Shown: piece after piece, positions 10,367-61,205 of the stretch | Numbering within the stretch: position 1 is the first letter of the stretch | Layout of the letters: the number at the start of each line of letters is the position of its first letter | Origin: Termitomyces sp. T153 | Taxonomy: Eukaryota; Basidiomycota; Agaricomycetes; Agaricales; Lyophyllaceae | Assembly: GCA_018296165.2 (NCBI GenBank) | Contig: JACKQL020000066.1 | Coordinates: 124,001 to 188,000 of the forward strand | Reading direction: 5' to 3' | Length of the DNA stretch: 64,000 nucleotides | Program-made: the position numbers and the translations under genes | The notes under the pieces: model-generated | Databases searched by the model: none | What the model was told of the DNA's origin: nothing | What the model saw: the letters and a program-made list of their open reading frames with translations, nothing else

Positions 10367-10382
10367 TCACCCCCCCTTCAGC
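10367..10382 (-). promoter_or_regulatory. Polypurine tract of element A
   Basis: Directly inside the 3' LTR the plus strand reads TCACCCCCCCTTCAGC, i.e. GCTGAAGGGGGGGTGA in sense orientation. This is the plus-strand DNA priming site of LTR elements. The same tract abuts the 3' LTRs of B and C. Confidence 0.85.
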
Positions 10383-10536
10383 ATCAAGACCCTTTGAGAT
10401 GCGGGGGGCGGGATGGGGATTGGCGGGGCGTGGGAGTCGAAGCCGAGCAATATTGATCAATCTGCAGTGAGTGATAGCGGCGTGGGAGGCAAAGTTGAAG
10501 CGCGGCTGCCGCTTCGTCAGGGTTCTCCTCAATCAA

Positions 10537-10542
10537 TTAAAA
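10537..10542 (+). promoter_or_regulatory. TATA-like box of the antisense aORF (element A)
   Basis: TTAAAA lies 36 nt before the aORF ATG at 10579. The corresponding gaps are 35 nt in C and 39 nt in B. Upstream similarity (GGCTGCCG.TTCGTCAGGG) is shared with B. Promoter function is inferred from conservation. Confidence 0.5.
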
Positions 10543-10578
10543 GCTTTGGACGTACCCCGGGGTTTCCCAAATTTCGTC

Positions 10579-11709
10579 ATGTCTTCCCCCAGTGTTCCAG
10601 TAGTCCCTTCTGCTGATTTGGACAAGGTGGTGGTGTACGATAGTGGGGGGGAGGAGTTTGAGCGTTGGCGCTGTGCTAGTGTCAGGGACCGGAGTCGTAA
10701 GTGGTGTTGACTTGTCTTTTCGGGATGATTGATGGGGCTTTTGTAGAGTCATCTGTGGTGGTGGTGGTGGATTTTCCGGGGGTTCCGAAACAGACTAAGT
10801 TTTGTCCTGCATTGCCGAAGGGGAAGGGGGTGTCCTCGGCGGTGGTTCGGGGGAAGCATCGAGCCTCCCCACCCTCAGGGGCAGGACCCAGCAAGAGGCC
10901 GCATGGGCATGAGTCATCGGTGGGGCCTCCGGAGTCTTCCCTTTTTTCTCCTACCCTGGGCATTCCCTTGGAACGGTCGTCGAGTCCCCCTGCGCCTATT
11001 CCTTTGATCACGGAGGTCTTTCTTTGCAAGCAGGTGGAGGCTTTGACGATGTCGTTGGCAGTATGGGAGGGTGAGCTCTGACAGGCGAGGGAGGATCGTG
11101 ACGTGGCGTGGACGGAGAAAGAAGCAATGGAGCGGGAGAGGAACACTTCGGTGCACGTGGCGACGGAGTGAGCGTTAGAGGTGCGGGGCTTGCAGGAGCA
11201 TCTGACGCAGATGGAGGGGCAGCCCGCGGGGGAGGCGGAGGGGCGGGGACAAGCTCCAGAGGGGGATGCGCTGTGGGTGGAGCTGGAGGCGGCGAGGCAG
11301 AGGGAGGACTGGTTGGCCAACAAGGCCGCTTCGGGGTGCGCGGGAATCCTTTGTGAGTTGTCTCCCGTTCCTCCGTTCATTACTGACGGTTCATTTTCTG
11401 GGTTTAGGCTGGGTGCGGGAGCATCGGGTCCTCTTGGACGGTGCCTCCGCGGCGTTCATGTCGATTCAAGACGGGTTGATGCAGGGGTCCGCAGTTCAGC
11501 CTCCAGAGTTGCAGCAGGGGATGGCGCGATTGGAGAGGTTGTTGGCGGGGCATTGGCGACACAATGTGGTGGCCCTGGGGTCATGGTGGGAGGTGGCGGC
11601 TGACGCGGGGGAGGCACTGCCGGGGTTGGTAAAGGTCTTAGCAGTGGTGCAGGCCCAGATGGAAGTCGACCTGGGGGTTGGGTTGCCGGTGGGTCCGGGG
11701 AGGGAGTGA
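10579..11709 (+). pseudogene. aORF of element A (antisense accessory gene, cysteine cluster lost)
   Basis: It runs on plus, opposite to the element, and starts MSSPSVPV like the B copy (MSSSAYSP). The first frame stops early (RKWC then TGA). The region that holds the cysteine cluster in B and C is missing. From about 10750 a readable P/S/K-rich linker and coiled coil follow: PSKRPHGHESS, then VRGLQEHLTQME. The conserved block is WLANKAASG, a 55-nt intron at 11353-11407 (GTGAGT...TTTAG), then WVREHRVLLDGASAAF, PPELQQGMARLERLLAGHW and a C-terminal VLAVVQAQMEVDLG. The intron joins the codon T|GC in frame. Function is unknown. No database family is claimed. Confidence 0.7.
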
Positions 11710-14406
11710 GATGGGTGTGGGCCTCGTTTCTTGCTGCTCTTGGACTTGCTGCCTCCCTCGCCTATTGTATATATAATTTTTTGTATGCAAACATGTCCTT
11801 TTCTTGGTCCCTGGGCGTGTGAAGTGAGGTTTTAGTTTGTATGAGGGCGAAGTAAGTGAAACACGCAGGGGTGTGAGAGGGAGTTGAATCCCTAGTGAGT
11901 CCAGAGGCGGGGGTTACGCCCACTAGTGCTGTCTGTGCTGGCTAGTCCCAGGGTTTGTCAGGACGGGGCGGGGCATCGCAGGGAGGGCTCCTGGGGTCTG
12001 GCAGGGGTGGTGGGAGTTCTCCGGTGGAGTTCTGTGGTATTTTGGGGTGTTGTATTGAGTTTGATTCTCGGAATTTCTGACCAGGGGTGTAGGGGTTTTC
12101 TTTGGTCTGCAGCGGGGACATGCGCAGTGTTGGTATCGGAGGGCGGACCTTCGAATCTTTTGCAGGCGTCCTGCAGGTTCGGGGCTTTGGTCTTCTTAGC
12201 AGTGCAGTTGGCAGGGGGGGGGGCAGAGGTCTTCCTGTGACCTGGCCCTTATGCCAGCACTGGTGGTGAAGGCAGCAGGGCCTTCTTCATTGGTGGGAAT
12301 TGGTGGGGCAAGGTTCATCCTCATGGCGTAGTTGGTCCGGGTCAGGATCATGTCCCGGAGTATTGTGTCTGTGGGCAGGCATGTTTGAGTGGTGCTTTGG
12401 TGTGCCCTGGAGTGTCGATGACTGAGGGGGTAGGATGTGGGGTGATCAGTCCCGACCAGTTCCTTTGGGTCCAGAGCCGAAATTTGAGGTTCCGGATCGT
12501 CTGCATGACATTGCTTTCCTGACCAAAGGTAAGTCCCGAGACGGACAGAGGGATCTTACATATTTCTGATACTTCCTCGAGTTTGGAGGTCTGGGGGTCG
12601 GTGGTTCCTTCATCGGGGAAGAATTGGGTGGTCCCAGAGTCGACACAAGGGTCACTTGGTGGGGGTTTGTTGGTTGTTCACGGTTGTTGGGGCGGCGGAG
12701 AGGTCAGCCGCAGGGAGGCACTGGGGTGGGGCTCCCCAGGGGTCGTGGCAGGGTTGAGGCAACTCTTCATTCATGTTCTGGAGTGGCCCGGAGATTGTTG
12801 CAAGTGTGGGGGTGGCAGTGGGGAGAGGCACCGCTCGCTTTTCACGTGTGGCCTGCTTCTGGGTACTCCAAAGAGGATGCTTGTATGTGGCTTGCTTCTG
12901 GGTGCTCCGATGGTGTGGTCCCTATTCAATGGACATATTCCAGCATAGGGGTGGAGCTCGGAGCAGGTGGTGATTTATGTTGCGGAGTTGGGGTTACCAG
13001 GGCATCGTTGTTGGGCTGGTGCCATGAGTACCCTCGATCAAATGTTGTGGTCGGAGCGGAGGCCCTGGAGTCGTGTTGCCAGGGTCCGAAGCTGTGTCGA
13101 GGGGTTTGGAGGGGGTCAGAAGGGTGGGTTGGGCAGTTTTGGGCTGGCGCAGGGTCGTTCAGGTCGTTGAGCCAGGTGGGGAGGTCCTCTAGGGATATCG
13201 GAGTATGTGCCCTTTGGGTTGTCAGGTCGCTTAAACGACTCTCTGGGTGATGGTGGGCTTCTCCCTCCCTTATATGAACATGTCAGCAAATCTAGAGTAC
13301 TTAGGGGAACTACTTCGTATAGGGTCCTTTTTCCTATAGTTAGTTCGGGGTGACTCCTATGCTGGGGGTTCCTTTGTGGGAGGTGGCGGAGTCTGATGGT
13401 GGAGTTTGGGTTTGGGGGTGGCATGCAGGGAGGTTTGGCATCCAGGGTCCTCATTGTCGGGGGTTCCGGATTGTGTGGGGGTGGTGAAATAGCGGCATGG
13501 TCCGGAGTTGTTCCTTGTCGGGAGTGGGGTACCGTGGTTCTCCCCATTAACGTCTGGAAGCTCGGGGATGTCTCGGTCTTGTGCCGGGGTTGTCGGGGTC
13601 GGGTCGGAGGTGTTGGGGCCCCTTCATTTGTTGGGCGGAGGTGACGGCCGAGTCGACCGAGGTCCGGAAGCAGGTCCTGGGGTTGGAGCGTAGCCTAGGT
13701 TGGAGGTTCTTGTTCTGTTGTTGGGGTTGTTGGGTTGAGCTTGATTTCGGTGGTTTCGGGGTTAGTTGTCGGAGGGCTTAGTTCCTCGGGAAGGGGGGGG
13801 GGGTTGGGGTGAGGGTCAGGGGTCGATAGTAGGGTTCAGTGATGTTGTCGGCGGTTAGTCACATTCGTCAGTCTGTGGAGTTGCCAGTGAGTCGGCAGAT
13901 CCACAGGCGGGCTTTGAAGAAGCGCGTTCTCAGTGGTCTCATTGGGGTTGGCGATCCTCATGCAATGGGTGACTGTTTTCGCGGTGGGTTGGCGTTATTG
14001 TTTGTTGGAGGGTTGGCGCAGTGCTGGAGACATTTGTTGCTCATTTGGTCAGATGGTTGCTGGGTTTTAGGATGCTGTTCTTTGGATGACATCAGGGTCA
14101 GCTTTGTGCGAGGGAACGGATTTGGCAGAGAGGATGAGGGTGGGGGTGGGAGATGATTTGATGGTTTGCGCGAGGGGTTGGAGGTTGGGTGGGAGTTGGG
14201 GAGGGTGTCCGTGGGGGAGCCGTTGTATGGAAGTAGCTGGAGCGGAGGGGACATTTGGTGTCGGATCTGCGACTCAATGTGCCTCGGCAAATTGGGCAGG
14301 GCCGTATGAATCATAAGGGTTTCCAGGCACGGGTAGACCATAGACATCGGAGTTATTTGATTGTGTGTGTGGAGATAATGCGGGCATCACGGACAGGGTA
14401 AGGTAG
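11710..14406 (-). other. Degraded internal region of element A (Gag start, PR-RT linker)
   Basis: No intact gene is present. Next to the primer site the minus strand opens with MPALSPHTQSNN (ATG near 14375) followed by YGLPVPGNPYDSYGPAQFAE. This resembles the Gag N-terminus of B (YGRPLLENSYAPFYPGPFA). Near 13270-13345 the minus strand reads RTLYEVVPLS and, in another frame, LLTCS/ADMF. That corresponds to the [14 protein letters not shown] linker preceding RT in B. The rest is G-rich on plus (C-rich, Pro-coding in sense). The homologous interval occurs in element C (48128-49282 plus 61206-63485). Confidence 0.6.
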
Positions 14407-14419
14407 AGTCTTGATATTA
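14407..14419 (-). promoter_or_regulatory. Primer-binding site of element A (self-primer complement)
   Basis: AGTCTTGATATTA on plus is TAATATCAAGACT in sense and directly follows the 5' LTR. It is complementary to the leader sequence at 15110-15122 in the same LTR at 12 of 13 positions. That leader starts 32 nt after the TATA box (15147-15154). Confidence 0.75.
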
Positions 14420-15599
14420 TGTCAGGTTCCGCTGACCTTGGGGGCTCAGCTGCACTGGGCGAGTCCTTACTAGGCGGGCGTGATCCCCTTGCACTGGTAA
14501 CCGAACACTCGAAAATGTCCGGGCACTGGTGTCTTGTGCAGATAGTCAGTGGGATGTGATTCAGACAGATCCGGGAAGGTCCAGAGAAGTCGGGTTGTGA
14601 GGAAATGGGATGGTCTTGGTGGGGTTCAGGCAGAAGACCATATGGGAGATTTGTGGGAGTGAAGGAGTGGACGGCTGTGTGATCAATGGGAGCAGAGCCG
14701 GGGTTTGATGGGAGATCAATTGGAGTTGATGGAGTCTGGGACTGAGCGAAGAGCAAGGTTCGGACCTGGTAAAAGAGTGTCGGGGTTTGTGATCATAATC
14801 ACGGAGTTTGTGAGGTTGTTTAAGTTGATGAGGACTTGGGCACAATGGCCAGACAGAGTCACCAAGACAGCATCAGACGAAATGGAATGGGGTTGATATG
14901 GAACAAGAGCAGATTCAAGTGGAGATACGAAACGATAACGAGAACAATAACAAAATGGAGACGAGACAAGACTGGGAGACTGAGATAAGACTGGGAGACT
15001 GAGATAAGACTGGGAGACTGAGATAAGACTGGGAGACTGAGAGTAAGGGGAACGAGACACCAAACACGAAACACAAAAAGGAAACAATCAGACCACAGGT
15101 AACGTTAAGCAATATCAAGACTAGAGTACAAAGAGCTACTCGACGGCTTATATACTGACTACCGGAGAACTTCGGGGTACGTCGGCTGCGGCAGCGGGGC
15201 TTGGCGGAGCTCAACAGAGTGAGCGGGTGTTGGTTGCGATCAAGGATTGGGCTGCACTGATACGTTGATGGGATCATTGGGGAATGCAAGTTGCCCCAAG
15301 GTTGTCATGATACTCCAGAATAGGTCGGAGGAACCAGGGTGTTGAGTTGATGATGGGTGACGAAGATTGAGAACAGTGGGGGTGGTTCTCGGGGTTTGGG
15401 AGACCCAGAGTAAGTGTCAGTGGCTGCGGGGAAGGCACAAAAGTTGGCCAGGGGGCCGTTGGAGTTAGCTGGGGAGGTGTTGGAGTTAGCCGAAATAGGC
15501 GCGGGGCAGGGGCAGAAGTTCGGCGGGGTGTCAGGGGTTTTTTGGGGGTTTGGGGGGTTGATGGACGATGTGCGGGGGTTCAGGGGACGGGTCGTGACA
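14420..15599 (-). repeat. Element A 5' LTR
   Basis: It begins TGTCAGGTTCCGCTGACC and ends GTCGTGACA. Its reversed TATA box is at 15147-15154. Four 20-bp units (GACTGGGAGACTGAGATAA type) lie at 14967-15043. The substitutions that separate it from the 3' LTR are mostly CG against TG or CA. Confidence 0.92.
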
Positions 15600-42592: not shown

Positions 42593-42593
42593 G

Positions 42594-43186: not shown

Positions 43187-43189
43187 AAA

Positions 43190-45224: not shown

Positions 45225-45440
45225 ATACAAACTAAAGACCCAAGTAGACAAAGTGAGGTTGGATCTGGATCTCAGCATTGAGTTACAAAATATAAAGATG
45301 TTACTGAACAAGGTGAGGTTGGGTCTGGATCTTGGCATTGAGTTCAAATACTGAAGACCTAACCAAATCAACTGAGGTTGGGTCTGTGTCTTAGCAAGAG
45401 ATACAGGCCCATCCCAAAGGCACAACTGTAGCTTATGCCA
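45225..45440. repeat. Minisatellite 3 (~58-bp units)
   Basis: Three units with GAGGTTGG(A/G)TCTGG end AGCAAGAGATACAGGCCCAT and CCCAAAGGCACAACTGTAGC. This is a mutated version of the palindrome tail of minisatellites 1 and 2. Confidence 0.82.
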
Positions 45441-46896: not shown

Positions 46897-48127
46897 ATGC
46901 CTTCTGCTGCGTCATTATTGCATTCTTCATTGCTAACCCCTCCCCCTTCTGGTGACAATCATGTGGCCATCTGGGCGGAGTATGAGCATCATTGGCAGGA
47001 GTTTGAGCAGTGGTGGGACTGTAAGAAGGTGGAGGTGATGGCCCATCATTGTGAGTGTGAGGTTTTTTCTTGCTCTGCAGTCGCTGATTGAGCTCAGCAG
47101 AGTTGTCTTCAGCTGTGGTGGGTTCCTCCGGGGGTTCTTTGCATATGAAGGGGTTGGGGCCTGCTAGTCATTCAGTTCTTGTTGCTCCCGGGCATTCCAT
47201 GAGGCCTAGTCTTGGGGCAGGGATTATTCACATTGTTCCAGAGGCAGAGAGGGTTCCATAGGCACAGGTGATGCTGGAGGTATTTGTGGGGGTGCTGGAA
47301 TGGGCATGAGGTCCTCTAACTCTAGAATGGTGCCAGAATGAGGCTCTAGTGAGTCTCTACCTCTTTTTTCAGTGTTTGCTGACCCATTGTTCCAGTGCAC
47401 CCTCTTTGCCTGGCAGGGAGAGTTGTGCAAGTTTGACAAGCCAACTGTGGAGTCCTGCCATGACACCTTGGTCTGTATTCCATGCTGCACTAGGCATGAG
47501 AAATGTTCAATTTTGCTGGAGTGGCATGCTGCATATATCACTATAGAGCAGGGGTGGGAGGAGTGCAGATGGCCACAGCAAGGGCACTGGAGGTGCAGAG
47601 TTTGCAGGAGCATCTGGCACAGTTGAAGGCATGATCCACAGAGGAGGCAGAGGAATGGCAGGGCTTGGATGAGGGAGGCTTGACTCAGGCACAGGCCAAG
47701 GCTGGGAGGCAGTGGGAGGAGTGGCTAGTGAGAGAGGCAGCCTCAGAGTGTGTGGGGATCTTGTATGAGTGTCCCTCTCTGCTTCATGACTTCTGCTAAT
47801 GAATTTAGGTCAGGCTGGGTCCAGGAGCACCAGGTCCTCATGGATGGAGCTTCTGCCACTTTCACATTGATCCAGAATGAGTTAGCACAGATGCCCATGG
47901 ATCATCCTCCAGAGTTACACCAGGGGGTGGTGAGGATGGAGCAGCTATTGGCAGGGCACTAGCAGCATAATGCAGTGGCTCTGGAGTTATGGTGGAAGGT
48001 GGTGGCAGATGTGGGGGAGGAGTTGCCTGGGCTTGTGGAGGTGCTGGCTGTGGTGAGGGCCCAGATGGAGGTGGATTTAGAAGTCATGAAAGTGGGGAGG
48101 GGAGCTCTGGAGAGGAAGAGGGAGTGA
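46897..48127 (+). pseudogene. aORF of element C (antisense accessory gene, decayed)
   Basis: It starts MPSAASLLHSSLLTPPPSG. Before the intron it reads LEWCQNEAL; a 47-nt GT-AG intron (47349-47395) follows. It continues CTLFAWQGELCKF, then ESCHDTLVCIPCCTRHEKCS and WHAAYITIEQGWEE. The B copy has the same intron position and the aligned C.SC....GEQC / CLLCHSRHEKCS cluster. The first cluster has Phe where the second Cys should be. A decayed coiled coil precedes WVQEHQVLMDGASATF, PPELHQGVVRMEQLLAGH and VLAVVRAQMEVDLE. Stops and frame changes make it a pseudogene. Its value is as an independent witness for the intron and cysteine pattern. Confidence 0.72.
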
Positions 48128-49277: not shown

Positions 49278-49282
49278 TTGTC
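49278..49282. repeat. Target site duplication TTGTC, left copy (element B)
   Basis: TTGTC immediately precedes the LTR start at 49283 and is repeated at 61201-61205 right after the 3' LTR. Confidence 0.93.
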
Positions 49283-49662
49283 TGTCATGACCTGCTCCCT
49301 AGACACTGCTCCCAACCCCTCCCAATTTCCCGTCTAACTCCCCTGAACCCCGCCCACACTGGATAACTCTGACGCTTCTCCGGCAAACCCTGACGGCAAC
49401 TCCCTCTCCGTAGCCATCAACACTCCCCTGAAACCTTCCCCCACCATTCCTGGCCACGTCATACATCCCCGACCCCCTACTCTAGTTTACCTGACCTGTC
49501 CCGGAGTATCACGACGTCCCCAGAGCGGCCGCGCCCCCAACTGATCCCATCAGAATACCACCGTGGCCCGACCTTGGATTGTACCCGACACCCATCGACT
49601 CTGCACAGCTCCATTGACCCCCGCCACCATATCCGCCGCCCTCCAAGGTACCCAGTAGTCAG

Positions 49663-49670
49663 TATATAAG
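49663..49670 (+). promoter_or_regulatory. TATA box of element B LTR
   Basis: TATATAAG in the context AGTCAGTATATAAGT is shared by nearly all family LTRs in the window. The distance to the AGTCTTGATATTA start block is 32 bp here, in the 3' LTR (60605 to 60637) and in element A (15154 to 15122). Confidence 0.8.
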
Positions 49671-49694
49671 TCGTAGAATAGCTCCTCGAACTTT

Positions 49695-49707
49695 AGTCTT
49701 GATATTA
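49695..49707 (+). promoter_or_regulatory. Predicted mRNA 5' end / self-primer sequence
   Basis: AGTCTTGATATTA lies 32 bp after the TATA box, where transcription should begin. It is the exact reverse complement of the 13 bases following the LTR (50259-50271). In Tf1-type elements the mRNA 5' end folds back onto such a site to prime minus-strand cDNA. Confidence 0.7.
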
Positions 49708-50258
49708 CATTTACCGGTTTCCTATGTTTCATCTCTTGTCTTGTCTCTATTTCTGTTTTTAAGTTTCAAATCTATCTTTTTCTCAGTCTCGTCTTGTCTC
49801 CGTCTCGTCTTGACTGTACATATTTCCTTTGTTCCTCTAAAGTTCCCTTGCCCCCTACGTCAGCACAAACTCCGCGCACGTGCCACAACCCAAACATTCT
49901 TATGACAACTCCGAACCTCGCTACCCGCTCGGCCCTGGAACCCATCAAGCCCTGGTAATCCCCTATCCAGCTCTGACCCCACCCCCATCACCCGGGAAGC
50001 CTCTGCCTACCCTGCAATCTATTTGTGTGCCCACAAACTAGCCCTGACACCTGCCCTGGGTCAACGACCAGTACCTTTGGTCTTAGACTCCTCCGGACCA
50101 TTCAGGACTTACTCGGGCCACTCTCCCTAGGGACCCCCTTGCAAGCTTTCCCCACCTCCGCTCCAACTCTGGATGCCTGGTTATAAGCGCAGGACATTGC
50201 ATCTGCCTAGTAAGGATTCGCCAGTGTACTGAGCCCCCGTCATCAGCGGAACCTGACA

Positions 50259-50271
50259 TAATATCAAGACT
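50259..50271 (+). promoter_or_regulatory. Primer-binding site of element B
   Basis: TAATATCAAGACT abuts the LTR end CCTGACA, leaving only 19 bases to the gag ATG. It does not end in TGG as a tRNA 3'-end complement would. It pairs perfectly with 49695-49707. Confidence 0.75.
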
Positions 50272-50290
50272 CCCCCTTACCCCGTTCTCA

Positions 50291-53200
50291 ATGTCTGCGT
50301 TTAACCCCGCATACAACCCTGTCGGTTACCCAACCGACGCCTACGGCCGGCCCCTACTGGAAAATTCCTATGCCCCATTCTACCCGGGTCCCTTTGCGGA
50401 CCAATACGTGCCCCGTCATTGGACCCCTGACCCCAACCAGGCGTTCTATGCCCCCTCCATCAGCCAGGGAATACCCACGGGCTGGCGCCGCCCTCCCGCA
50501 TTCCACGCCAATGGCAACAACCCCTGTATCAACCCTGGAGGATACTGTCACGACCCGTTCCCCAAAACCCCGCACATCGTCCATCAAACCCCCGAACCCC
50601 CAAAAGGACCCCCAACGCTCCGCCGAACTTCCGCCCATGCCCACGCCTACTTCGGCTAACTCCGACACCTCCCCGGCTAACTCCGACGGCCCCCTGGCCA
50701 ACTTCGGTGCCTGCCCCGCAGCCACTGACACTTACCCTGGGCTTCCCAAACCCCGAGAACCACCCCCGCTATTCCTGATCTTCGCCCACCCATCATTAAC
50801 TCAACACCCTGCTTCCTCCGACCTATTCCGGAATATCACGACAACCTCGGAACAACCCGCGATCCCATCAACGTATCAGCGCGGCACGATCTTCGATCAC
50901 AACCGACACCCGCCCACTCCGTCAAGCCCCGCCAAGCCCCGCCGCCACAGCCGATGTACCCCGAAGTCCTCCGGTAGTCAGTATATAAGTCATCGAGTAG
51001 CTCTTCGTACTCCAGTCTTGATATTGCTTAACGTTACCTATGGTCTGATTGTTTCCTCTTTGTGTTTCGTGTTCGTTTTCGTATCTCTTTCTCCTTACTC
51101 TCAGTTTCCCGGTCTTATCTCAGTCTCCCGGTCTTATCTCAGTCTCCCGGTCTTATCTCAGTCTCCCGGTCTTGTCTCGTCCCCTTTTCGTTATCGCTCT
51201 CGTTATCGTTTCGTACCTCCACTCGAATCTACTCTTGTTCCATATTGTCTCGTCTGACGCCGTCTCGGTGACGTCGTCTGACCCTTGTGCCCAATTCCTC
51301 ATCAACCCTAACGACCTCACGAATTCCGCGATTATAATTACGAACCCCGACACTCCTTACCCGGTCCGAACCTCACTCTTCGCTCGGTCCCGGACTCCAT
51401 CAACTCCAAATGATCTCCCATCAAACCCCGGCTCCGCCCCCATTGATCACACAGCCACCTACTCCCTTGCTTCCGCAAATCTCCCGTACGGCCTTCTGCC
51501 TGAACCCCGCCAAGACCGTCTCATTTCCCCACAATCCGACTTCTCCGGACCTTCCCGGACCTGTCTGGATCACATCTCCCCAATTACCCGTGCAAACCCC
51601 CAGGACCCAGAATGTCTTTGAGTGTCCGGTCACCAATGCAGGGGAATCACGCCCGCCTAGTAAGGACTCGCCCAGTGCAGCTGCGCCCCCGAGGTCAGCG
51701 GACCCTGACAGATACTCTGCAGCACCCCCCAACCCCGCCTACCTCCCCCCCGCCCATTACTATGCATACCCAATCCTCGCTGCAGCCCCAGTCCCTCTGG
51801 AGGCCACAGATAACTATTCCCCTCCCTGCCCACCGTTCGCTGCTCAAACCCCTCCTTCTCCTAGGTAGCAAAGAATCGAAGCCTACGCCTAGCAACGCGA
51901 CGAAGTCCTCCGCTTCCTCCACCTGTCCCCCGCAGAATTTGCAAGGCATACCTGCACCCTCCTCACCAACCTAGGCTACCCTGACGCCTCTGCAACTCCG
52001 GAGGTCTGGGTGGATCAACTCCTCGGCTTCCACAAATGCTACCTGCAAGGGAACCTCCCGGAGAATACGCAAGGCACACTGGGCATCAATGACAACTTAC
52101 AGAACAAGCTCCGCACCTTGGTCGAAGAAATCCACACTAGCCCAAACCCCCGCCCCTTCAAAGACCCTCTGGATCCTGCCTGCTCCTTCCACATGCAACG
52201 CAAGGAACCCGTCGGGACACAAAACGAACCCCATCAGCAGGAAGAACTCAACGCAGCCTCCAGCATCTTGAGGAACCTCAACCCCATGGGGGAGTTGTTC
52301 GACCAACCCGCCGCCCACACCTTGGCTCTCTCCGCCCGGCCCCGGGCCAGCTCCGTGCCCAGCGCCTTCCAAACCTGGGACCAACCCGCCGCCCCCGAAC
52401 TCCATTCCCAACGACTGCCCCTATGCGTCAATGACAACAACAGGACCCTCTCCTATATTGACGAGCCGGGCAACCCCGCCGATGAACACTCCCCATGCAA
52501 CGGGCCCCAACGAGACCGACCCCCCCACTTTGATCTCCGCGCCCCTCGTAGCAATGCCCCTCCGCCCCGTCCCAACGCCCCAGTTCCCCCGCGACAGCCC
52601 ATGGGCCCTGGGGCACCCCGACCCCCTTTTTCTGCCAACCCCTCTCATCCCCCGCCCACCCCGATGCCTAATCCCCCCACCGACGCCAACTATTTCAGAC
52701 CCCCAAACCCTGGAGGACCCCCTCCCCCTCAATGGGCCCCAGGACCTGCCCCAGGTAGTGTGGGTCAAAACCCCGGTGGAGGACCACCCAATGGCAGACC
52801 CCCGGGAGGATGGGGCCCGGCAATGGACAACTTTCCCCCCCAGCGCGGAAACAGAAATCACTACTACTACTACTACAACGCTGGACCCCCACCTCAAACT
52901 CAAAATTCACAGGATGATACCCGCGATGCACTGGCCCAGGAGGGTAAGCTTGACATCCAGAAGCCCGAACCCTTCACCGGCTGCGACCCTCGGAAGTGGC
53001 AAATCTTCCTGACCCAGTGTTTAACTATGTTTCAAGCTAAGCCCATCACTTTTCAGCTTGAGAGCTCATGAGTAGCCTTCGCCACATCATACTTACAGGG
53101 CATCGCCTTTGACCACTACACCATGCTACTCCAGTTCAACCCAAACAATCCTGTACTCTCTAATTGGCTCACTTTCACCCAAGAGTTCTCAAGTAAGTTT

Positions 53201-53956
53201 GGTGTCTTTGACACCGTAGCGGAGGCGGAGGAAAATCTCTTCAACCTCCAAATGCACAACAACGAACGCTTTACGACCTTCATCGTACGATTCAAACGAG
53301 AGGCCTATGAGACTGGCTGGAATTACAACGCCCTCCGGTTCACCCTCCGTTGTGCCCTACCCCAACAGATCAAGGACGTTCTTTGCCTTGCGCCCAAACA
53401 AACCACCTACAATGGGTACAAGGCGCTCATTATCCAGGTCGACCAACGTTACTGGGAAGACTGCAGCAAAAACACGGCGCCCCAGACCTCTTGGAACACC
53501 TCCAGTAACACCAACTGGCAGGCCAGAGCAACCAATGGCATCCGATCCTCAATCCCCGCTAACCCTGCTAACCCCACACCCCACTTCCCTCCAGGCTGAG
53601 GAGTCCCCAACACCAACCGACCCCCAGGGCAGCGCCCACTTGCCCAGCTCAACGCCACCGACCTCCATGACACCCCAGTACCCCTGGATACCAACCCCGA
53701 CGATCATGACGACATCCCGGACCCCGCTGATGATCAAGAAGCCCTATGCGCAAACAGAATCCAGGACAGCCCGTGGATCGACGTGCCAGAGGAAACACAG
53801 GAGAAACAATGGAAGGGGGGCGCGTGCATCCTATGTGGTGAGCAGGGACACTTTATTCGCAGTTGCCCTAAACAACAGGTGATGGGATGCGCCATGTGGA
53901 TGATCGACGGAGAAGACTGTAACTACCAGTTCACAGAAAATGAGTCGGCAGTTTAG
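50291..53956 (+). pseudogene. Gag of element B (split by solo LTR 6)
   Basis: The start is MSAFNPAYNPVGYPTDAYGR, 32 bases after the LTR. The frame is interrupted at 50546-51715 by solo LTR 6 plus one TSD copy and resumes exactly (NPGGY|SAAPPNPAY). A long Pro-rich segment (52500-52900) precedes the capsid-like core: QKPEPFTGCDPRKWQIFLTQ, IAFDHYTMLL, WLTFTQEFSSKFG, ALPQQIKDVL. A CCHC knuckle CILCGEQGHFIRSC lies at about 53827-53868. Stops in frame include TAG at about 51866 and 51890, and TGA near 53069 and 53597. The frame closes at TAG 53954-53956, and the protease frame starts one base back. Role: particle assembly and RNA binding. Confidence 0.88.
50546..51710 (+). mobile_element. Solo LTR 6 (A-type Ty3 LTR) nested in element B gag, TSD GATAC
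   Basis: It starts TGTCACGACCCG and ends GCGGACCCTGACA. GATAC is at 50541-50545 and 51711-51715. It has CAGTATATAAG and CCAGTCTTGATATTGC, plus four 20-bp CTCAGTCTCCCGGTCTTAT units at about 51096-51180. CpG is abundant, so it is the youngest insertion layer in the nest (inside B, inside C). Confidence 0.95.
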
Positions 53957-54571
53957 GTCTAGAAGATGCACTAGACCGTGGACCATATCCCGACGTCTTC
54001 TCTGCCCCAGCCACACTCCTCCGCGCAATGATACTCGCCCTGGATAACCCCCCAGCACACCTCCCCTCCCACTCCTCCACAAACCTCCTCCTCTGCACCA
54101 CTCTCCCCTTCACCAACAAACCCGTCCCCACACTAGTCGACAGCGGCGCCACCGATAACTTCGTTGACAAATCCCTGGTGGCGCTTGCCCCACAACCCCT
54201 CCGCTGCCTCCCTGCCCCAATCCCCCTCAAACTCTTTGACAGAGACTCTACCCCAGCGGGAGACATCACTCATTGCCTAGACACGACCCTGACCTTTGCC
54301 AATGGACAACAGCAAGAACTCCGACTCCTTGTCACAAAATTACACCCCTCCGCCCCTGTCGTCCTAGGGTTCTCATGGCTCCGCTCCACCAATCCCCACG
54401 TCAATTGGCCCAGTCTCACCCTACGCCTCAACTGGGACAACCCCACCAACTCCGAACTGGTACCCTTCAATGTCTCACCCCCCTCCAAGAACTCCAAGAC
54501 CACGATTGACCAACCCCAGACCCCGCCGCAACTTTGCTCTAGGTCTGCACGATTGTTCGTCATCTACGTCT
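53950..54571 (+). CDS. Element B retropepsin-like domain 1
   Basis: The frame reads SLGLEDALDRGPYPDVFSAP, then PVPTLVDSGATDNFVDKSLV, with the catalytic motif DSGA at about 54139. Further on come IPLKLFDRDSTPAGDITH, LLVTKLHPSAPVVLGFSWLR and NPHVNWPSLTL, the flap and C-terminal pattern of Ty3 protease-like domains. It begins one base back (-1) from the gag frame, so gag and pol may be joined by frameshifting, or a mutation moved the frame. It stops at TGA 54571. It would cleave the polyprotein in the particle. Confidence 0.8.
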
Positions 54572-54582
54572 GACTTGGCGGC

Positions 54583-55020
54583 TTGCTCAAGATACTTCCT
54601 GCCCTCGTAGACAGCGGCGCCTCCGGTGTCTTCGTCAGCAACCAACTCGACCTCCAATGCAACGACCTCGACAAACCCCTTGAGCTCCAACTCTTCGACG
54701 GGAGCCCCACCACGACAAGAATCACGCAGTACCACGACAACACCCTCACCCTCGATAATGACCTGCAGTTCCAGGCCCGACTCCTCGTTACCCAACTACC
54801 CCCATCGACCCTGATTGTGCTTGGACTCCCGTGGCTGCGAGACATCAATCCCGACATCAACTGGAAGAACCTCACCATGCAATTCCCCGGCCCTGAAGCA
54901 AGCTTAGCGGCCGACATCACCCTGGACCTGACTGCTACACCTACGGTACCCAACCCCATCAACTCTGGAAACCTTAACATTAAAATCATTGGCGCCGTCC
55001 CCTTTGCGCGCCTCCTATGA
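54583..55020 (+). CDS. Element B retropepsin-like domain 2
   Basis: A second DSGA copy at about 54610: LPALVDSGASGVFVSNQLDL, LELQLFDGSPTTTRITQY, LLVTQLPPSTLIVLGLPWLR and NPDINWKNLTM. It parallels domain 1 motif for motif, so the domain was duplicated or the region is a pseudo-dimer. The end IKIIGAVPFARLL meets TGA at 55018-55020 and continues with [15 protein letters not shown] toward RT. Confidence 0.8.
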   Translation: MLKILPALVDSGASGVFVSNQLDLQCNDLDKPLELQLFDGSPTTTRITQYHDNTLTLDNDLQFQARLLVTQLPPSTLIVLGLPWLRDINPDINWKNLTMQFPGPEASLAADITLDLTATPTVPNPINSGNLNIKIIGAVPFARLL

Positions 55021-55041
55021 GAAGGTACCCCCACCTTCCAG

Positions 55042-56560
55042 TTGCAAGTCACGCCAGCCCTACCCGAGAAATACCTCCGCGTGGGGACTACCGTGCCAGA
55101 AAACAAGATGGAGGAACAGATCCTATCCGAAGTAGTTCCCCCGGAGTATCATGAGTTTGCTGACATGTTCTCTGAAGGAAGTGCCAAGGAACTCCCTCCG
55201 CACTGCTCCTACGACCACCAGATTGACCTCGAAGAAGGTACCTCACCCCCATTTGGCAAGATCTACAACATGTCCAAAATCGAGCTCCGGGCCCTGAAGG
55301 AATACCTCGACGACATGCTCGGCAAAGGTTTCATACATCCCTTGATCTCCGCGGCTGGCACCCCGGTTCTGTTTGCCAAGAAAAAAGATGGATCCCTCCA
55401 ACTCTGTGTGGACTATCGGGGACTCAACAAAGTCACCAAAAAGAACCGGTACCCCCTCCCCTTAATTGGAGACCTTGTTGATTGCCTGCGCAGCGCCAAG
55501 ATTTACATGAAAATCAACCTTCGTTCCGGCTACAACAATGTCTGGATCGCCCCGGGACATGAATGGAAGACCACCTTTCGCACCCGCTACGGCCTCTTTG
55601 AGCATCTCGTAATGCCCTTCGGAATGACTAACTCCCCCGCCACCTTCCAGTACTTCATGAACGACATCTTCCACAACATGAACGACATCTTTGTCATTGT
55701 ATATTTGGATGATATCCTGATCTACTCAAATTCGCCAGCGGAGCATTTGGAGCACATCTGCCATGTCCTGGAACGACTCCAAGAGTATCACCTTCACACT
55801 AAACCCGAAAAGTGCTCATTCCACACAGCGGAAGTCGAATATCTCGGGGTCATCGTCACCCCCGATGGTGTGCACATGGACCCTGCCAAGGTTGATGTGA
55901 TACTCAACTGGCCCTCCCTGCGGAACGTCAAGGAGGTACAGTCATTCTTGGGGTTTGCTAACTTCTATCGCTGCTTCATCGACAACTACTCCGGGATCAC
56001 CAAACCCCTCAACCAACTCACACGGAAGGACACCCCTTGGGATTGGGACAGCAAGTGCCAGAGCATGTTCCTCCTCCTGAAGAAGGCCTTCACCTCTGCT
56101 CCAGTCCTCCACCATTTCGACCCCTCCCTACCGATCATGCTCGAATGTGACGCCTCTGACTACGCTATTGCTGGGATACTCTCCCAGTCGAACTCGGGGG
56201 GCAAGGATCTCCGCCCCGTCGCCTTCTACACCCGATCAATGATCCCAGTGGAACTCAACTACAACATCCACGACAAGGAACTCCTCACAATTGTCGAAGC
56301 CTTTTGTTAGTGGCGGGCCTACCTCGAGGGGTCCCCACACCGCATCCAAGTCTACTCCAATCACAACAACCTGCAATATTTCACGACCACAAAACAGCTC
56401 AGCCGCCGCCAGGCTCGATGGTCCGAAACCCTTTCGGAGTATGATTTTACTATTCACTACCGCCCTGGGCAACTCGGCGCAAAGCCTGACACCCTCACTT
56501 GGAGACCCAACATGTATCCAAAGAAATCGTTCAAAACCAAACAAAATGCATTCAACCATT
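55042..56560 (+). CDS. Element B reverse transcriptase and RNase H
   Basis: A linker [20 protein letters not shown] leads into [62 protein letters not shown] and the active site YLDDILIYS at 55702-55728. The connection and RNase H follow ([39 protein letters not shown]). TAG at 56308-56310 interrupts EAFC|WRAYLEG. The end [11 protein letters not shown] and [29 protein letters not shown] is readable. HN replaces DH in the usual T/SDH.NL motif, a G-to-A change. Template: element mRNA; the product is cDNA. Confidence 0.93.
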
Positions 56561-56562
56561 GA

Positions 56563-57802
56563 GTGGTAATCCCACCCGAACATCTACATGCTGTGCTGAT
56601 TTTAAACAAAGAAGGATTCCTCCAGCAAATCAGGAATTCGCCCCCGGACCCCTTCTTCAACCAGCACAACCCCTGCAACAACCCCGACAAGTCAAGCGTA
56701 GACAACCCCTTTTCGCTATCCCCGGACCACTGCCTCCTGCTCCGGAGTGGACAAATCTACACCCCGGACCACAAGTCCATTTGCCTCGACATACTCTGGC
56801 AGCACCACGATCACAAACTCCAGGGGCACCCAGGAATTCGTAAGACCCTTCAACTCATCTCCCGGACTGATTTTTGGCCAGGAATGAAGAAGGACGTCAC
56901 GCAATATGTAAGAGCCTGTAAACCCTGCCTACGGGCCAAAGTACCCCGCCATCACCCCCATGGATTACTGAAACCCCTCCCCGTCGGTTGCCGCCCCTGG
57001 TCTTCAATATCGATGGATCATATCGTCAAACTCCCCGACTCCAAAGGTTTCGACGCAATCCTTGTCATCGTCTGCCGCCTTACTAAACAAGCCCTCTTTA
57101 TTCCCTGCCACACCACTGACACCACCCCGGATTTCGCCAAACTATTTCTAGAACACGTATTCTCCAAACACAGACTTCCCAACGACATTGTCTCCGACCG
57201 CGGACCCCTATTTGTATCTCATTTTTGGCAATCGCTGTGCAAGGTGCTCGAGATCAAAACCAGCCTCTCTACCGCCTACCCTTTCGGAAACCGACGGACA
57301 AACCGAGTGCGTAAACCAGATGTTAGAACAGTATCTTTGCCTCTACGTTAACTATTTACAGAACGACTGGCACGCAGAGCTTCCCCTCACCAAATTCACC
57401 TACAACAACACGCCTCACTCCGCCACCGGAGTTTCCCCCTTTTACGCCAACAAGGGCTACAATCCTCGACTCACGCTGTCCCTCAAAGACATCCCTTCCC
57501 ACATTGCCCACGAAGTCGCCAAGGACCTCCGATCCCTCCACCAATTCCTCTGGGATGAGATTGACACCACCAACCAAGCCTACTCCAAGCACGCCGATGC
57601 CTGTCCCAAGCCGACCCCTGACTGGCCCCCCAGCACCCTGGTCTGGCTCGACCGACGAAATCTTAAGACCTGGAGGCCTTCCATCAAACTCGACCACAAA
57701 TGCCTCGGCCCATTCAAGATCCTCCGGAAGGTCTCCACCCACACTTACAAGCTCGACCTGCCTCCGGGCCTGAAGGGCCTCCACCCTGTGTTCCACATTT
57801 GA
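56563..57802 (+). pseudogene. Element B integrase (one-base shift)
   Basis: The zinc-binding N-domain is seen as HHDHKLQGHPGIRKTLQLIS and YVRACKPCLRAKV. The core follows with SISMDHIVKLPDSKGFDAIL (first Asp) and LPNDIVSDRGPLFVSHFW (second Asp). Around 57283-57290 a single-base indel moves the frame, and the downstream frame gives TDGQTECVNQMLEQYL with the third catalytic Glu, then YNNTPHSATGVSPFYANKGY. The C-domain reads LVWLDRRNLKTWRPSIKLDH, LGPFKILRKVSTHTYKLDLP, HPVFHI and stops at 57800. It would insert the cDNA with a 5-bp duplication, as seen at all TSDs here. Confidence 0.9.
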
Positions 57803-57868
57803 CTCCTTGAAAGGCACGCTCCAGACCCCTTGCCCGGCCAATGCCCCAGCCAACCGCCCCCCGTCAAA

Positions 57869-58072
57869 GTTGAGGACGAGTATCACTACAAGGTCGACAA
57901 GATCCTCGACTCCCAGATAGTTCATGGCCGACTCCAATACTTGGTCTGCTGGAAAGGCTACGGACCTGAGGATGACACGTAGGAACCCTGAAAGAACCTT
58001 GACAGAGCCTCCGACGAACTCCAGGACTTCCACCGACAAAATCCCGCCAAGCCCCAGAACCCCCGGGACTGA
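57869..58072 (+). pseudogene. Element B chromodomain
   Basis: [20 protein letters not shown], then [17 protein letters not shown], has the Y...W cage pattern of a chromodomain. Two Trp codons in the following DDTWEPW motif are TAG and TGA, both explicable as G-to-A changes. KNLDRASDELQDFHRQNPAK ends the domain, and TGA is at 58070-58072. In chromoviruses this domain steers integration to heterochromatin. That fits the insertion of family members into other elements, but the link is inferred. Confidence 0.88.
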
Positions 58073-58301
58073 CCCAACACAGATGGCAATAGTGGGCGTA
58101 ACCCCCACCTCTGGGTTCACCAGGGATTCAACTCCCACCAGTACTCTCCTACGTGTTTCCACTTACTCCTCTCCTTGCTCTATCTGAAACTTCCCACACT
58201 CAGCAGAAGGACCAGAGACTGTATAGGAACAAGCAGTGTACATATATATACTCGAACAAGAAGGGGCAGAAAACAAGTCAACAATGGGGTCCAAGTTCCC
58301 C

Positions 58302-59997
58302 TCACTCTCCCTCCTCCTCTGACCCTAACCCCGCTACCCTTGCCACCATGAACACCTCCAACTGTGCCACTACCGCCGCCAGAACCTCGGGTTGCCTGGG
58401 AAGTGGTTCCCCCACGTCCGTCGCCATCTCCCACCACGCCCCGGGATCTGCTGTCACCCTCCGCCGATGCCCTGCCAACAGACGCCCCATCTGTGTAACC
58501 CCTTGACCCAACTCCAGCAGAAGGTCCCCGGGCATCCTCACCAACCCATCATGGATGGACCCCAGCGCTGCCAACGCTCCGTCGAGAAGGATGCAATGCT
58601 CCCTGGCCCAGTCTATGGAACCTGAATCAGTGCATAGGAGATGAAAGCGGGGAAACCACTCATGAAGCACTCCTTGCCAGCCCGAGGCCGCCTTGTTGGC
58701 AAGCCATTCCTCCCGCCGTTGCGCCCTCTCCGCTGCCGCCTGGACTTCCCCAGTGCTGGAACCCTGCTGGGTCTCCCACACCCCTGAGCCTCCTGCCTGC
58801 TGCATCGCCACCTCCACCGCCTCTGCCTGTGCCTGCAAATGCACTGTCCGCACCTCCAACTCCTGCAGACAAGACAATTGCTCTGCAGCAGTCCCAACGG
58901 CGATGTCCTTGTCTTTCCACGCCAAGTCCTGTTCCCTCCGAACCCTGTCCAACTCCCATCGAGCCCCATCCCTCTCCTCCTGTACCCCCTGAATCTCCTC
59001 CTCGCATGCAACCAACAACCGTTCCAAGCCCTCTACCCAACGCCACAGATAGGCCTCTGCAACCGACCATGACCTATCCGTGGACTGCTCAACGGGGGCT
59101 CTGGAGGTAGGGGAGTACACCGCGGAACCAGGGGGGCCCCCCATTACCTGCTCGCCCCGTGCCCCCTTACTGAGACCCGCCTCAGGTGAAGGGGACGCTC
59201 TCTGTTTCCCTTTCTCCTGCGTGGAAGGGGCCCCCTTCCTCTGCCCACCCTGCGGGGAGCCCACCTTCATGACAGGCGCGCTAACCCGTTCCCCTTCCCC
59301 AGCCCCGGAGCCCCTCCCCGACACCCTGCCCTTCCGCCCTTCCTCCAGCTGCGCTGCGACCCAACCTCAATCCCACCCTTGCTCCGCCGCAATGCAGATG
59401 GCCCGCCAACTCAGGGTGACAGAGCACTTCTCGTGCCGTGAATGGCATAGAAGGCACACCGATGTGTCCTGCCGTACCCCCAATGCAGGTTCCTCAAATT
59501 CACACTGCTCCCCTCATTGGGTACAAGATGCACACTGCAGGGGCATGTTGGTCCAGGAAACATGAAGCTAAGTAGCCACTCACTGGGGCCGCCGCCTGAC
59601 ACCACTTGAGGGTGGGGGGACCCCTCGCCCAACCCACCGCCTCGGCAAACTGCTCCGGCGTCACCTCTGCCTGTACCACCCTCAAACCCTCTGGGACAAG
59701 CCGGACCACCTCCAGACAAATGCCAGACTTGGAGCGCGTAGAAGGAGCCACGCCTGCTGGTGGATGCGTTGCATCCGCGCCAGACGGTGGCCCTGAGGGA
59801 CCAGCCACAGCCGCGGACAACTCTACGAAGGGACAATCAGTGTTCTGGGGTACATGAGATGGACCGCACTCATGACTACGGTACATTGCCTCGACCCAAC
59901 AGCAATCTCGGCGAACCTCTGACTCTTTGGAAGACAACAGCTGGGAAGGCGGGGACGGCGACCTAGATGCTGTGGGAGAATAAGCTGAAGAAGACAT
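58302..59997 (-). pseudogene. aORF of element B: antisense spliced gene with Cys6 cluster and coiled coil
   Basis: The minus-strand gene lies between pol and the 3' LTR, convergent with pol (230 bases between stops). Exon 1 is 59997-59584 (MSSSAYSPTASRSPSPPS ... PTLKWCQAAAP). The intron is 59535-59583 (GTGAGT...CTGCAG, 49 nt). Exon 2 is 59534-58302. Both exons are multiples of three, for 548 codons. Exon 2 opens CASCTQ.GEQCEFEE and continues DTSVCLLCHSRHEKCSVTLS, i.e. C-x2-C-x6-C-x15-C-x2-C-x6-C, like a spread Zn2Cys6 cluster. A basic P/S/K-rich linker follows, then a coiled coil (LERLLVACEEEIQGVQEE; RWELDRVRREQDLAWKDK). The conserved end has WLANKAASG and WAREHCILLDGALAAL. Two in-frame TGA codons (after CTQ and after QGWD) break this copy. 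It may be DNA-binding, but the function is unknown. Confidence 0.75.
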
Positions 59998-60036
59998 TAC
60001 AACAAGCTGGGGGACTCCCGGGTGCATCCACCCCTT

Positions 60037-60042
60037 TTAATG
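60037..60042 (-). promoter_or_regulatory. TATA-like box of the antisense aORF (element B)
   Basis: TTTTAA on plus (TTAAAA on minus, context AGTCATTAAAAGG) lies 39 nt upstream of the aORF ATG at 59997. The box and upstream CAGCCGCCGTTCGTCAGGGG have counterparts in A and C. Confidence 0.5.
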
Positions 60043-60195
60043 ACTTAGGAAGGGGCCCCTGACGAACGGCGGCTGCACCTCGACTTCCTTCCCCACGCCA
60101 CCACCGCTCGCTGCAGTTTGATCAATATTGATCAACTTCGATTCCCATGCCCTACCAATCTCCGACTCGCTCCCCACGTCTTGAGGGTCTCAATG

Positions 60196-60210
60196 CTGAA
60201 GGGGGGGTGA
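60196..60210 (+). promoter_or_regulatory. Polypurine tract of element B
   Basis: CTGAAGGGGGGGTGA directly precedes the 3' LTR start TGTCATGACC. It is the expected plus-strand primer and matches the tracts of A and C. Confidence 0.88.
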
Positions 60211-61200
60211 TGTCATGACCTGCTCCCTAGACACTGCTCCCAACCCCTCCCGATTTCCCGTCTAACTCCCCTGAACCCTGCCCACACTTTCATGCCCACA
60301 CTGGATAACTCCGACACTTCTCCGGCAAACCCTGATGGCAACTCCCTCTCTGTAGCCATCAACACCCCCCTGAAACCTTCCCCCACCATTCCTGGCCACG
60401 TCATACATCCCCGACCCCCTACCCTAGTTTACCTGACCCGTCCCAGAGTATCACGACGTCCCCAGAGCGGCCACGCCCCCAACTGATCCCATCAGAATAC
60501 TGCTGCGGCCCGACCTTGGATTGTACCCGACACCCATCGACTCCGCACAGCTCCGTAGACCCCTGCCACCATATCCGCCGCTCTCTGAGGTACCCAGTAG
60601 TCGGTATATAAGTTGTAGAATAGCTCCTCAAACTTTAGTCTTGATATTACATTTACCGGTTTCCTATGTTTCATCTCTTGTCTTGTCTCTATTTCTGTTT
60701 TTAAGTTTCAAATCTATCTTTTTCTCAGTCTTGTCTTGTCTCCGTCTTGTCTCGACTGTACATATTTCCTTTGTTCCTCTAAAGTTCCCTTACCCCCTAC
60801 GTCAGCACAAACTCCGCACACGTGCCACAACCCAAACATTCTTATGACAACTCCGAACCTCGCTACCCGCTCGGCCCTGGAACCCATCAAGCCCTGGTAA
60901 TCCCCTATCCAGCTCTGACCCCACCCCCATCACCCGAGAAGCCTCTGCCTACCCTGCAATCTGTTTGTGCACCCATGAACTAGCCCTGACACCCGCCCTG
61001 GGTCAACGACCAGTACCTTTGGTCTTAGACTCCTCCGGACCATTCAGGACTTACTTGGGCCACTCTCTCTAGGGACCCCCTCACAAGCTTTCCCCACCTC
61101 CGCTCCAACTCTGGACGCCTGGTTATAAGCGCAGGACATTGCATCTGCCTAGTAAGGACTTGCCAGTGTACTGAGCCCCCATCGTCAGCGGAACCTGACA
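60211..61200 (+). repeat. Element B 3' LTR
   Basis: It starts TGTCATGACCTGCTCCCTAG and ends GCGGAACCTGACA, 990 bp. The TATA box is at 60605-60612 and the start block AGTCTTGATATTA at 60637-60649. Differences from the 5' LTR are few and mostly transitions. Confidence 0.95.
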
Positions 61201-61205
61201 TTGTC

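What the first reader, a model, noticed from the sequence alone, without database searches (positions are those of the whole stretch)
58302..59997. Antisense accessory gene (aORF) in a fungal chromovirus, retained in pol-less relatives
A minus-strand gene occupies the interval between pol and the 3' LTR of element B. Homologues occupy the same place and orientation in elements A (10579-11709) and C (46897-48127). A and C have lost RT, RNase H and integrase but kept this gene, so it may have been selected. It could help non-autonomous copies mobilise, counter host silencing, or regulate the sense promoter. Antisense extra ORFs are known from some plant LTR elements; I am not aware of a characterised fungal one with this architecture.
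Basis: partly seen in the sequence, partly recalled or inferred. Interest (0 to 1): 0.92.

Follow-up and report, generated by a model that had tools for sequence, protein, structure and literature searches.

The report
Antisense spliced gene in fungal retrotransposons
Jumping genes in a mushroom that is probably a termite-farmed Termitomyces carry an extra gene written backwards, with its own introns, and selection appears to have kept it even in relatives that lost their other genes.

Summary
Element B (49283-61200) is a Ty3/Gypsy chromovirus. Between pol and its 3' LTR lies a minus-strand gene of three exons (59997-58302). The window copy is decayed, but many genomic copies are open. An intact copy encodes 531 aa: six cysteines in fungal Zn(II)2Cys6-like spacing (below Pfam's cut-off), a bipartite nuclear-localisation-like segment, a long predicted coiled coil and a conserved C-terminal block.

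Among 42 B copies, shared non-CpG variants show purifying selection (N/S ratio 0.24), singletons none (0.97), and introns vary about 3-4 times more than exons. The apparent conservation of one sense frame is a shadow of this gene. The A family, in which no gag or pol was found, is recently amplified (40 scored filler loci, 97-100% identical) and keeps a version without the cysteines, again under purifying selection (0.13, 11 copies). A, B and C share priming signals.

Homologues were found only in Termitomyces. Antisense genes at this place are known from plants, and brtn of the fungal element Boty is prior art, so this is a new variant of a known kind. Best inference: a nuclear regulatory or anti-silencing accessory protein. 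No transcript or functional data were available.

The parts
49283..61200 (+). Element B: Ty3/Gypsy chromovirus, inserted in element C with 5-bp target duplication TTGTC (49278-49282 and 61201-61205)
   Evidence: LTR pair 94% identical; TSD
49283..50258 (+). 5' LTR of B
50259..50271 (+). Presumed primer-binding site TAATATCAAGACT, complementary to AGTCTTGATATTA in B's own LTR, 32 nt after the start of TATATAA (self-priming layout)
53123..53599 (+). gag fragment (Retrotrans_gag)
   Evidence: PF03732, E 1.7e-6
55042..56310 (+). RT and part of RNase H
   Evidence: PF00078 E 2.7e-36, PF17919 E 5.1e-27
56563..57351 (+). Integrase
   Evidence: PF17921 E 2.9e-20; chromodomain PF00385 found in the pol of copy L021
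59584..59997 (-). aORF exon 1 (ATG at 59997)
   Evidence: ATG in 46 of 46 unique copies; coordinates
59535..59583 (-). Intron 1 (49 nt)
   Evidence: GT donor 45 of 46, AG acceptor 46 of 46; shared non-CpG variant density 0.20 against 0.05-0.07 in exons
58664..59534 (-). aORF exon 2
   Evidence: coordinates; shared-variant N/S ratio 0.26 for exon 2 of the two-exon model, which runs on through intron 2 and exon 3
59424..59534 (-). Six-cysteine block C-x2-C-x6-C-x15-C-x2-C-x6-C (Zn2Cys6-like)
   Evidence: six Cys in 46 of 46 copies; Pfam Zn_clus E 0.0073, below its cut-off; coordinates derived from the start of exon 2
59151..59213 (-). Bipartite nuclear-localisation-like segment (KGKRR...KRAR in copies such as L020; altered in the window copy)
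   Evidence: the name is from recall, no predictor was run; coordinates derived from the codon index
58613..58663 (-). Intron 2 (51 nt, in frame); donor decayed in the window copy
   Evidence: shared-variant density 0.216
58302..58612 (-). aORF exon 3 with stop; conserved C-terminal block
60198..60210 (+). Polypurine tract GAAGGGGGGGTGA, identical in A, B and C
60211..61200 (+). 3' LTR of B; the antisense promoter is presumed to lie in it or in the 213 bp before the ATG (inferred)
9218..15599 (-). Element A: no gag or pol found, LTRs 9218-10369 and 14420-15599, TSD CCAAG
   Evidence: TSD read by eye
10579..11709 (+). A-type aORF, no cysteine block; antisense to element A; window copy decayed (2 stops)
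46897..48127 (+). C-type aORF, about 450 bp shorter inside than other C copies

Best explanation
SHOWN BY SEQUENCE: the interval holds a protein-coding gene on the antisense strand, with three exons and short GT-AG introns, kept by purifying selection on the protein in the autonomous B family and in the A family, where no gag or pol is found. INFERRED: in A the selection continued after gag and pol were lost, because compared copies share the same pol-less filler. INFERRED: the gene is transcribed from the 3' LTR side as a separate mRNA and spliced; because it is antisense to the genomic RNA, its introns are not removed from that RNA and survive reverse transcription. INFERRED: the product is a nuclear accessory protein that dimerises through its coiled coil and, in B and C, binds DNA through a zinc-cluster-like module, acting on the element's own chromatin as activator or anti-silencer. 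A keeps the nuclear and oligomerisation parts only and borrows gag-pol from B-type elements, with which it shares primer site, polypurine tract and LTR ends.
For: B, 42 of 46 unique copies: shared non-CpG transitions N/S 28/57 against 833:409 expected (ratio 0.24, p 1.5e-10); singletons 59/30 (0.97). Introns vary about 3-4 times more than exons in B. A, 11 copies: 10/41 against 497:262 (ratio 0.13, p 2.4e-11), no indel in the 987 coding nt. Pairwise dN/dS 0.19 between A copies L019 and L050 (dS 0.315), 0.34 between A and B. Frame control: no sense frame is open in B over either exon of the two-exon model; the sense frame whose third positions face those of the gene has 7 stops in the spliced L020, as chance predicts (6.4 +/- 1.9), and a higher dN/dS than the aORF frame in all 4 A-A and A-B pairs compared. 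B-like integrase in place: 102 of 120 B matches, 2 of 150 A matches at odd distances, 0 of 33 C matches. 117 of 150 A-type blocks have no stop (counted by eye). PBS identical in A and B, PPT in A, B and C. Six-cysteine spacing in 46 of 46 B copies and in Termitomyces P0087 and P0107, which are 36% identical. Long helices, residues 254-394, in the model of P0087.
Against: No RNA evidence at all. Pfam Zn_clus stays below its cut-off and is weaker or absent in relatives. The structure model is poor (pLDDT 64, pTM 0.31) and matches nothing. CGG-n-CCG sites are not enriched in the LTRs. A has no cysteine block, so DNA binding by it cannot be the only selected function. A trans-acting protein should not be maintained copy by copy unless it acts near its own gene or few copies are active. 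In A, intron 2 does not vary more than the exons (0.055 against 0.058; intron 1 0.14). 45 of 146 integrase matches had no listed B-type aORF beside them. Singletons are not neutral everywhere: 0.28 in gag and 0.29 in RT, 0.53 in A.
Confidence: 0.42

Rival explanations
1. The protein is a cofactor of the integration complex: it enters the nucleus with the cDNA or integrase and helps import or target-site choice, together with the chromodomain integrase.
For: Nuclear-localisation-like segment in both A and B types. Plant genes at the same place have been proposed to be nuclear accessory proteins (PMC7264820, section 7 read).
Against: It would act in trans, so pol-less A copies would gain nothing from encoding their own; no sequence link to gag or integrase was found (Pfam).
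Confidence: 0.2
2. The antisense transcript, not the protein, is what matters (RNA-level control of copy number or of silencing).
For: Position and orientation fit an antisense regulator; splice sites are conserved.
Against: Selection acts on amino acids: low N/S in this frame.
Confidence: 0.07
3. The conservation is a shadow of a sense-strand gene overlapping the region.
For: In A the sense frame facing third positions has no stop over the main exon in 8 of 11 copies and looks conserved (ratio about 0.19).
Against: Every sense frame of B has at least 2 stops in exon 1 and at least 3 in exon 2 in each of 42 copies. The aORF frame has the lower dN/dS and the higher identity in all 4 A-A and A-B pairs; sense stops match the number expected by chance. 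In A, codon position 2 varies less than position 1 in the aORF frame (3 against 15 sites, p 0.0075), the usual order for a coding frame.
Confidence: 0.03
4. A-type conservation is inherited from unseen autonomous A-type elements; pol-less copies are repeated fresh deletions and are not themselves selected.
For: Match lists are capped, only 62 of 150 A-type genes were tied to the pol-less filler, and a divergent integrase would escape.
Against: L019 and L050 both lie beside the filler, which suggests that pol was lost before they diverged, and dN/dS between them is 0.19. 34 of 40 young filler loci have the gene beside them.
Confidence: 0.15

Closest known systems
brtn of Boty-like elements, Botrytis cinerea (Zhao et al. 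2011)
   Same: Fungal LTR element with CHROMO-domain gag-pol and an extra antisense gene (passages in PMC4227169, PMC8365987, and text of PMC7264820; original paper not seen)
   Different: Ascomycete host. No Botrytis protein appeared, but brtn itself was not compared. The passages read mention no pol-less lineage and no selection test
aORF-3R genes of plant Grande, RIRE2, Retand, PvRetro13
   Same: Antisense gene between pol and 3' LTR, present in many copies, nuclear or DNA-related role proposed; some Retand elements are non-autonomous (PMC7264820, PMC11963269)
   Different: No Pfam match to TRP28 (PF04195); six-cysteine block and introns here
Fungal Zn(II)2Cys6 proteins
   Same: Spacing within both cysteine triplets; a predicted coiled coil occurs in the same protein
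   Different: Below Pfam cut-off; 15 residues between the triplets; no other transcription-factor domain detected
Anti-silencing proteins of transposons (VANC of VANDAL elements; recalled)
   Same: Element-encoded accessory protein with a nuclear role (the role here is only proposed)
   Different: No sequence comparison made; DNA transposon of plants

Membership tests
Antisense additional ORF of LTR elements (aORF-3R) | Lies between pol and the 3' LTR | tested here: met
   Integrase at 56563-57351, gene at 58302-59997, PPT and LTR from 60198
Antisense additional ORF of LTR elements (aORF-3R) | Opposite strand to gag-pol | tested here: met
   Integrase on the opposite strand within 4 kb for 102 of 120 B matches; at 899-1023 nt for 76 of the first 86
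Antisense additional ORF of LTR elements (aORF-3R) | Present and conserved in many copies | tested here: met
   101 of 146 integrase matches have a listed B-type aORF (lists capped)
brtn (Boty) | Sequence homology to BRTN | not tested
   No BRTN sequence at hand; no Botrytis hit
Chromovirus (Ty3/Gypsy) | RT, RNase H, integrase and C-terminal chromodomain | tested here: met
   pol of copy L021: PF00078, PF17917, PF00665, PF00385
Fungal Zn(II)2Cys6 cluster protein | Six cysteines, two C-x2-C-x6-C triplets | tested here: met
   46 of 46 B copies; read by eye in P0087, P0091 and P0107 and in C-type L052
Fungal Zn(II)2Cys6 cluster protein | Pfam Zn_clus above its cut-off | tested here: not met
   16.8 bits against 21; 5 of 10 members of A2 match at E up to 1
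Fungal Zn(II)2Cys6 cluster protein | Binds zinc and DNA | not testable with these tools
   needs purified protein
Non-autonomous LTR element (A, C) | LTRs and priming signals but no gag-pol | tested here: met
   no match of the B gag fragment, PR, RT or IN; PPT in A and C, PBS in A; TSD of A
Self-priming (Tf1-type) element | PBS complementary to the 5' end of its own transcript | tested here: inconclusive
   Complementarity 12-13 nt, 32 nt after the start of TATATAA; transcript start not known

The most novel reading that the evidence does not exclude
A-type elements are parasites reduced to one gene: a recently amplified retrotransposon lineage whose only coding capacity is an antisense, intron-bearing nuclear protein. 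Selection kept it after gag and pol were gone, because the protein acts in cis on the chromatin of the copy that makes it. Having no zinc module, it may pair through the shared coiled coil with the B-type protein and so compete for or recruit B's system.
Probability: 0.2. Interest if true: 0.82.

Novelty: new variant of a known kind. Interest (0 to 1): 0.62.

Why it matters
According to the review read here (PMC7264820), the function of antisense extra genes of LTR elements is not known. Here is a high-copy fungal case with intact copies, conserved introns on the antisense strand and measurable selection. It also offers a natural series (full gene in B, gene without the zinc-like block in A), including a lineage without detectable pol in which this gene is the only one seen to be kept. 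That makes the question of what these genes do directly testable. It also suggests how a retroelement can carry introns: put the gene on the strand that is not packaged.

Tried and rejected
Sense-shadow explanation: one sense frame in A looked conserved, which was a real worry; the direct comparison and the closed sense frames in B reject it. Gag-substitute idea: gag of copy L021 has its own CCHC knuckle, though below Pfam's cut-off, so the six-cysteine block is not needed as a nucleocapsid. Zinc-cluster binding sites (CGG-n-CCG) in LTRs: no excess (B young LTR part 6 against 5.3 +/- 2.1 in shuffles, window B LTR 2 against 2.2, A LTR 0 against 1.0). Fold search on the model: nothing at E 0.001. 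PDB by sequence: nothing at E 1, nothing convincing with the profile. PADLOC: nothing convincing. Homologues outside Termitomyces: none in three searches, but two of these scored only about 7990 capped candidates and all need shared exact words, so absence elsewhere is not shown. Singletons as a neutral control worked for the B aORF (0.97) and roughly for integrase (0.84), but in gag and RT they are 0.28 and 0.29 (17 and 18 copies), so they are not purely post-insertion there.

Rows dropped: 3 duplicates of 49 aligned B sequences; 4 of 46 unique copies (L019, L046, L047, L048; indels) before the N/S counts; L011 and L017 were kept although they carry 6-nt and 1-nt insertions whose columns are not counted. 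In the controls, partial matches were left out (gag 1, RT 2, integrase 9). One search used 86 of the 120 rows; one search repeated it with all 120. For C, 33 rows were used.

Full report
WHERE. All 98 homologues of the antisense protein, and those, are named as Termitomyces (strains J132, T112, Mn162, T159_Od127, T32_za158), so the host is very probably a Termitomyces; this is inference from the hits.

THE ELEMENT. B has LTRs at 49283-50258 and 60211-61200, 94% identical, flanked by TTGTC on both sides, and sits inside element C. Gag, protease, RT-RNase H and integrase domains are on the + strand (protease below cut-off in this decayed copy). A young copy (L021) has an open 1358-aa pol ORF ending in SH3_Tf2-1 and Chromo domains, so B is a chromovirus. 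The window copy is old: CpG observed/expected over the gene region is 0.57 against 0.97 in 15 young copies.

THE GENE. Forty-six unique copies were aligned, 40 of them without indels over the gene. They define an ATG and two short introns on the antisense strand. Public Termitomyces gene models such as P0001 show the same join at intron 2 (read by eye; models, not known to rest on transcripts). The 531-aa product of L020 has six cysteines C-x2-C-x6-C-x15-C-x2-C-x6-C, kept in 46 of 46 copies and in P0087 and P0107, which are 36% identical to each other. Cysteine codons are not prone to CpG decay, so retention within the family alone is weak evidence; retention across species is stronger. Pfam's Zn_clus gives only a sub-threshold partial match (E 0.0073). 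A segment KGKRR-x10-KRAR in L020 has a counterpart in A-type copies; calling it a bipartite nuclear-localisation signal is from recall. AlphaFold2 gives long helices at residues 254-394 of P0087 and further helices at 402-460, with low overall confidence, and no structural relative was found.

SELECTION. Most shared variants are CpG transitions (324 of 430), so these were set aside. Among 42 B copies, shared variants (in at least two copies) are N/S 28/57 transitions, ratio 0.24 against a mutational expectation of 833:409; singletons are 59/30, ratio 0.97 (p-values). The two-exon version of the test gives 36/57 and 61/31. Known genes of the same elements give shared ratios 0.18 (gag), 0.17 (RT-RNase H) and 0.13 (integrase), and singleton ratios 0.28, 0.29 and 0.84. 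Shared variants are 0.20 and 0.216 per site in introns 1 and 2 and 0.05-0.07 in exons. This is a count-based test, not a codon model, and shared sites are not independent events.

WHICH STRAND CODES. In B no sense frame is open in any of 42 copies, over either exon of the two-exon model. In A one sense frame is nearly open and looks conserved, its third positions facing those of the gene. In all four A-A and A-B pairs compared, the aORF frame has the lower dN/dS (for example 0.34 against 0.54, and 0.19 against 0.26) and higher identity; in the one B pair the two are nearly equal (0.27 and 0.28). The number of sense stops is that expected from codon-resampled aORFs (2 against 2.4, 3 against 2.0, 7 against 6.4). 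The sense signal is a shadow of the antisense gene.

POL-LESS RELATIVES. A has LTRs, TSD CCAAG, and an interior of about 4 kb holding the gene and a filler. The B gag fragment, PR, RT and IN proteins find nothing in A or C. Genome-wide, a B-like integrase lies on the right strand within 4 kb for 102 of 120 B matches (76 of the first 86 at 899-1023 nt), for 2 of 150 A matches (at 4.0 and 5.7 kb; 6-kb limit) and 0 of 33 C matches. The A-filler of L019 gives 40 scored loci, itself included, 97-100% identical, and 34 of the 40 have an A-type gene beside them: a recent burst of pol-less elements. Among 11 A copies, shared variants are N/S 10/41, ratio 0.13, singletons 18/18, ratio 0.53, and there is no indel in the coding columns; 4 of the 11 have no in-frame stop. 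L019 and L050, both beside the filler, differ by dS 0.315 and dN 0.060. So selection on the protein very probably continued after pol was lost. The A-type copies lack the cysteine block (L019 and L025 have no cysteine in the part aligned, the other nine 1-5); the C-type copy L052 keeps it, interrupted by a stop, read by eye. C was not tested for selection.

SHARED MOBILISATION SIGNALS. A and B have the same sequence TAATATCAAGACT after the 5' LTR, and A, B and C the same polypurine tract. The presumed primer site is complementary over 13 nt (B) or 12 nt (A, C) to AGTCTTGATATT(A) in each LTR, 32 nt after the start of TATATAA, a layout recalled from self-priming Tf1-type elements. B can therefore plausibly mobilise A and C; this is inference.

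PRIOR WORK. [quoted passage not shown]). Boty's gag-pol has a CHROMO domain and carries brtn (PMC4227169 and PMC8365987, passages); PMC5987419 mentions BRTN in a Monilinia transcriptome (passage). Retand elements include non-autonomous members, and their antisense genes are proposed to bind DNA (PMC11963269, passages and discussion). In the listings of my searches I saw no basidiomycete case and no test of selection in a pol-less lineage; I judged the listed papers by title and the start of the abstract, and only open-licence papers are searched.

VERDICT. A real, selected, intron-bearing antisense gene; new variant of a known kind; splicing and function inferred, not shown.

Noticed in passing
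50259-50271; 60637-60649; 14407-14419: Primer-binding site complementary to the element's own LTR 32 nt after the start of the TATA box, in B and A, with the same LTR motif in C: a self-priming layout like Tf1 (recalled).
   Followed up: partly
49278-61205: Element B is nested in element C with 5-bp duplication TTGTC, splitting C's interior.
   Followed up: yes
50546-51710: An A-type LTR lies alone inside element B between its 5' LTR and gag; it is 98.4% identical to the LTR of the pol-less copy in L019.
   Followed up: partly
13255-13403 and 63162-63318: A and C share a 73% identical interior stretch that by eye resembles the region just before RT of B; possibly the same ancestral pol relic.
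   Followed up: no
G000 contig ends (C10, C112, C289, C181, C241, C121, C170, C174 and others): Many contigs end within some tens of bases of the outer end of a B or A LTR (for B; offsets for A); most likely assembly breaks at these repeats, but the number is striking.
   Followed up: partly
58150-60300 and its copies: Old copies have lost CpG (0.57 in the window against 0.97 observed/expected in young copies), and most shared variants are CpG transitions: methylation-type decay, as expected of silenced elements.
   Followed up: partly
40264-45422: Cluster of related 100-220 bp direct repeats (D3, D11, D12), nature unknown.
   Followed up: no
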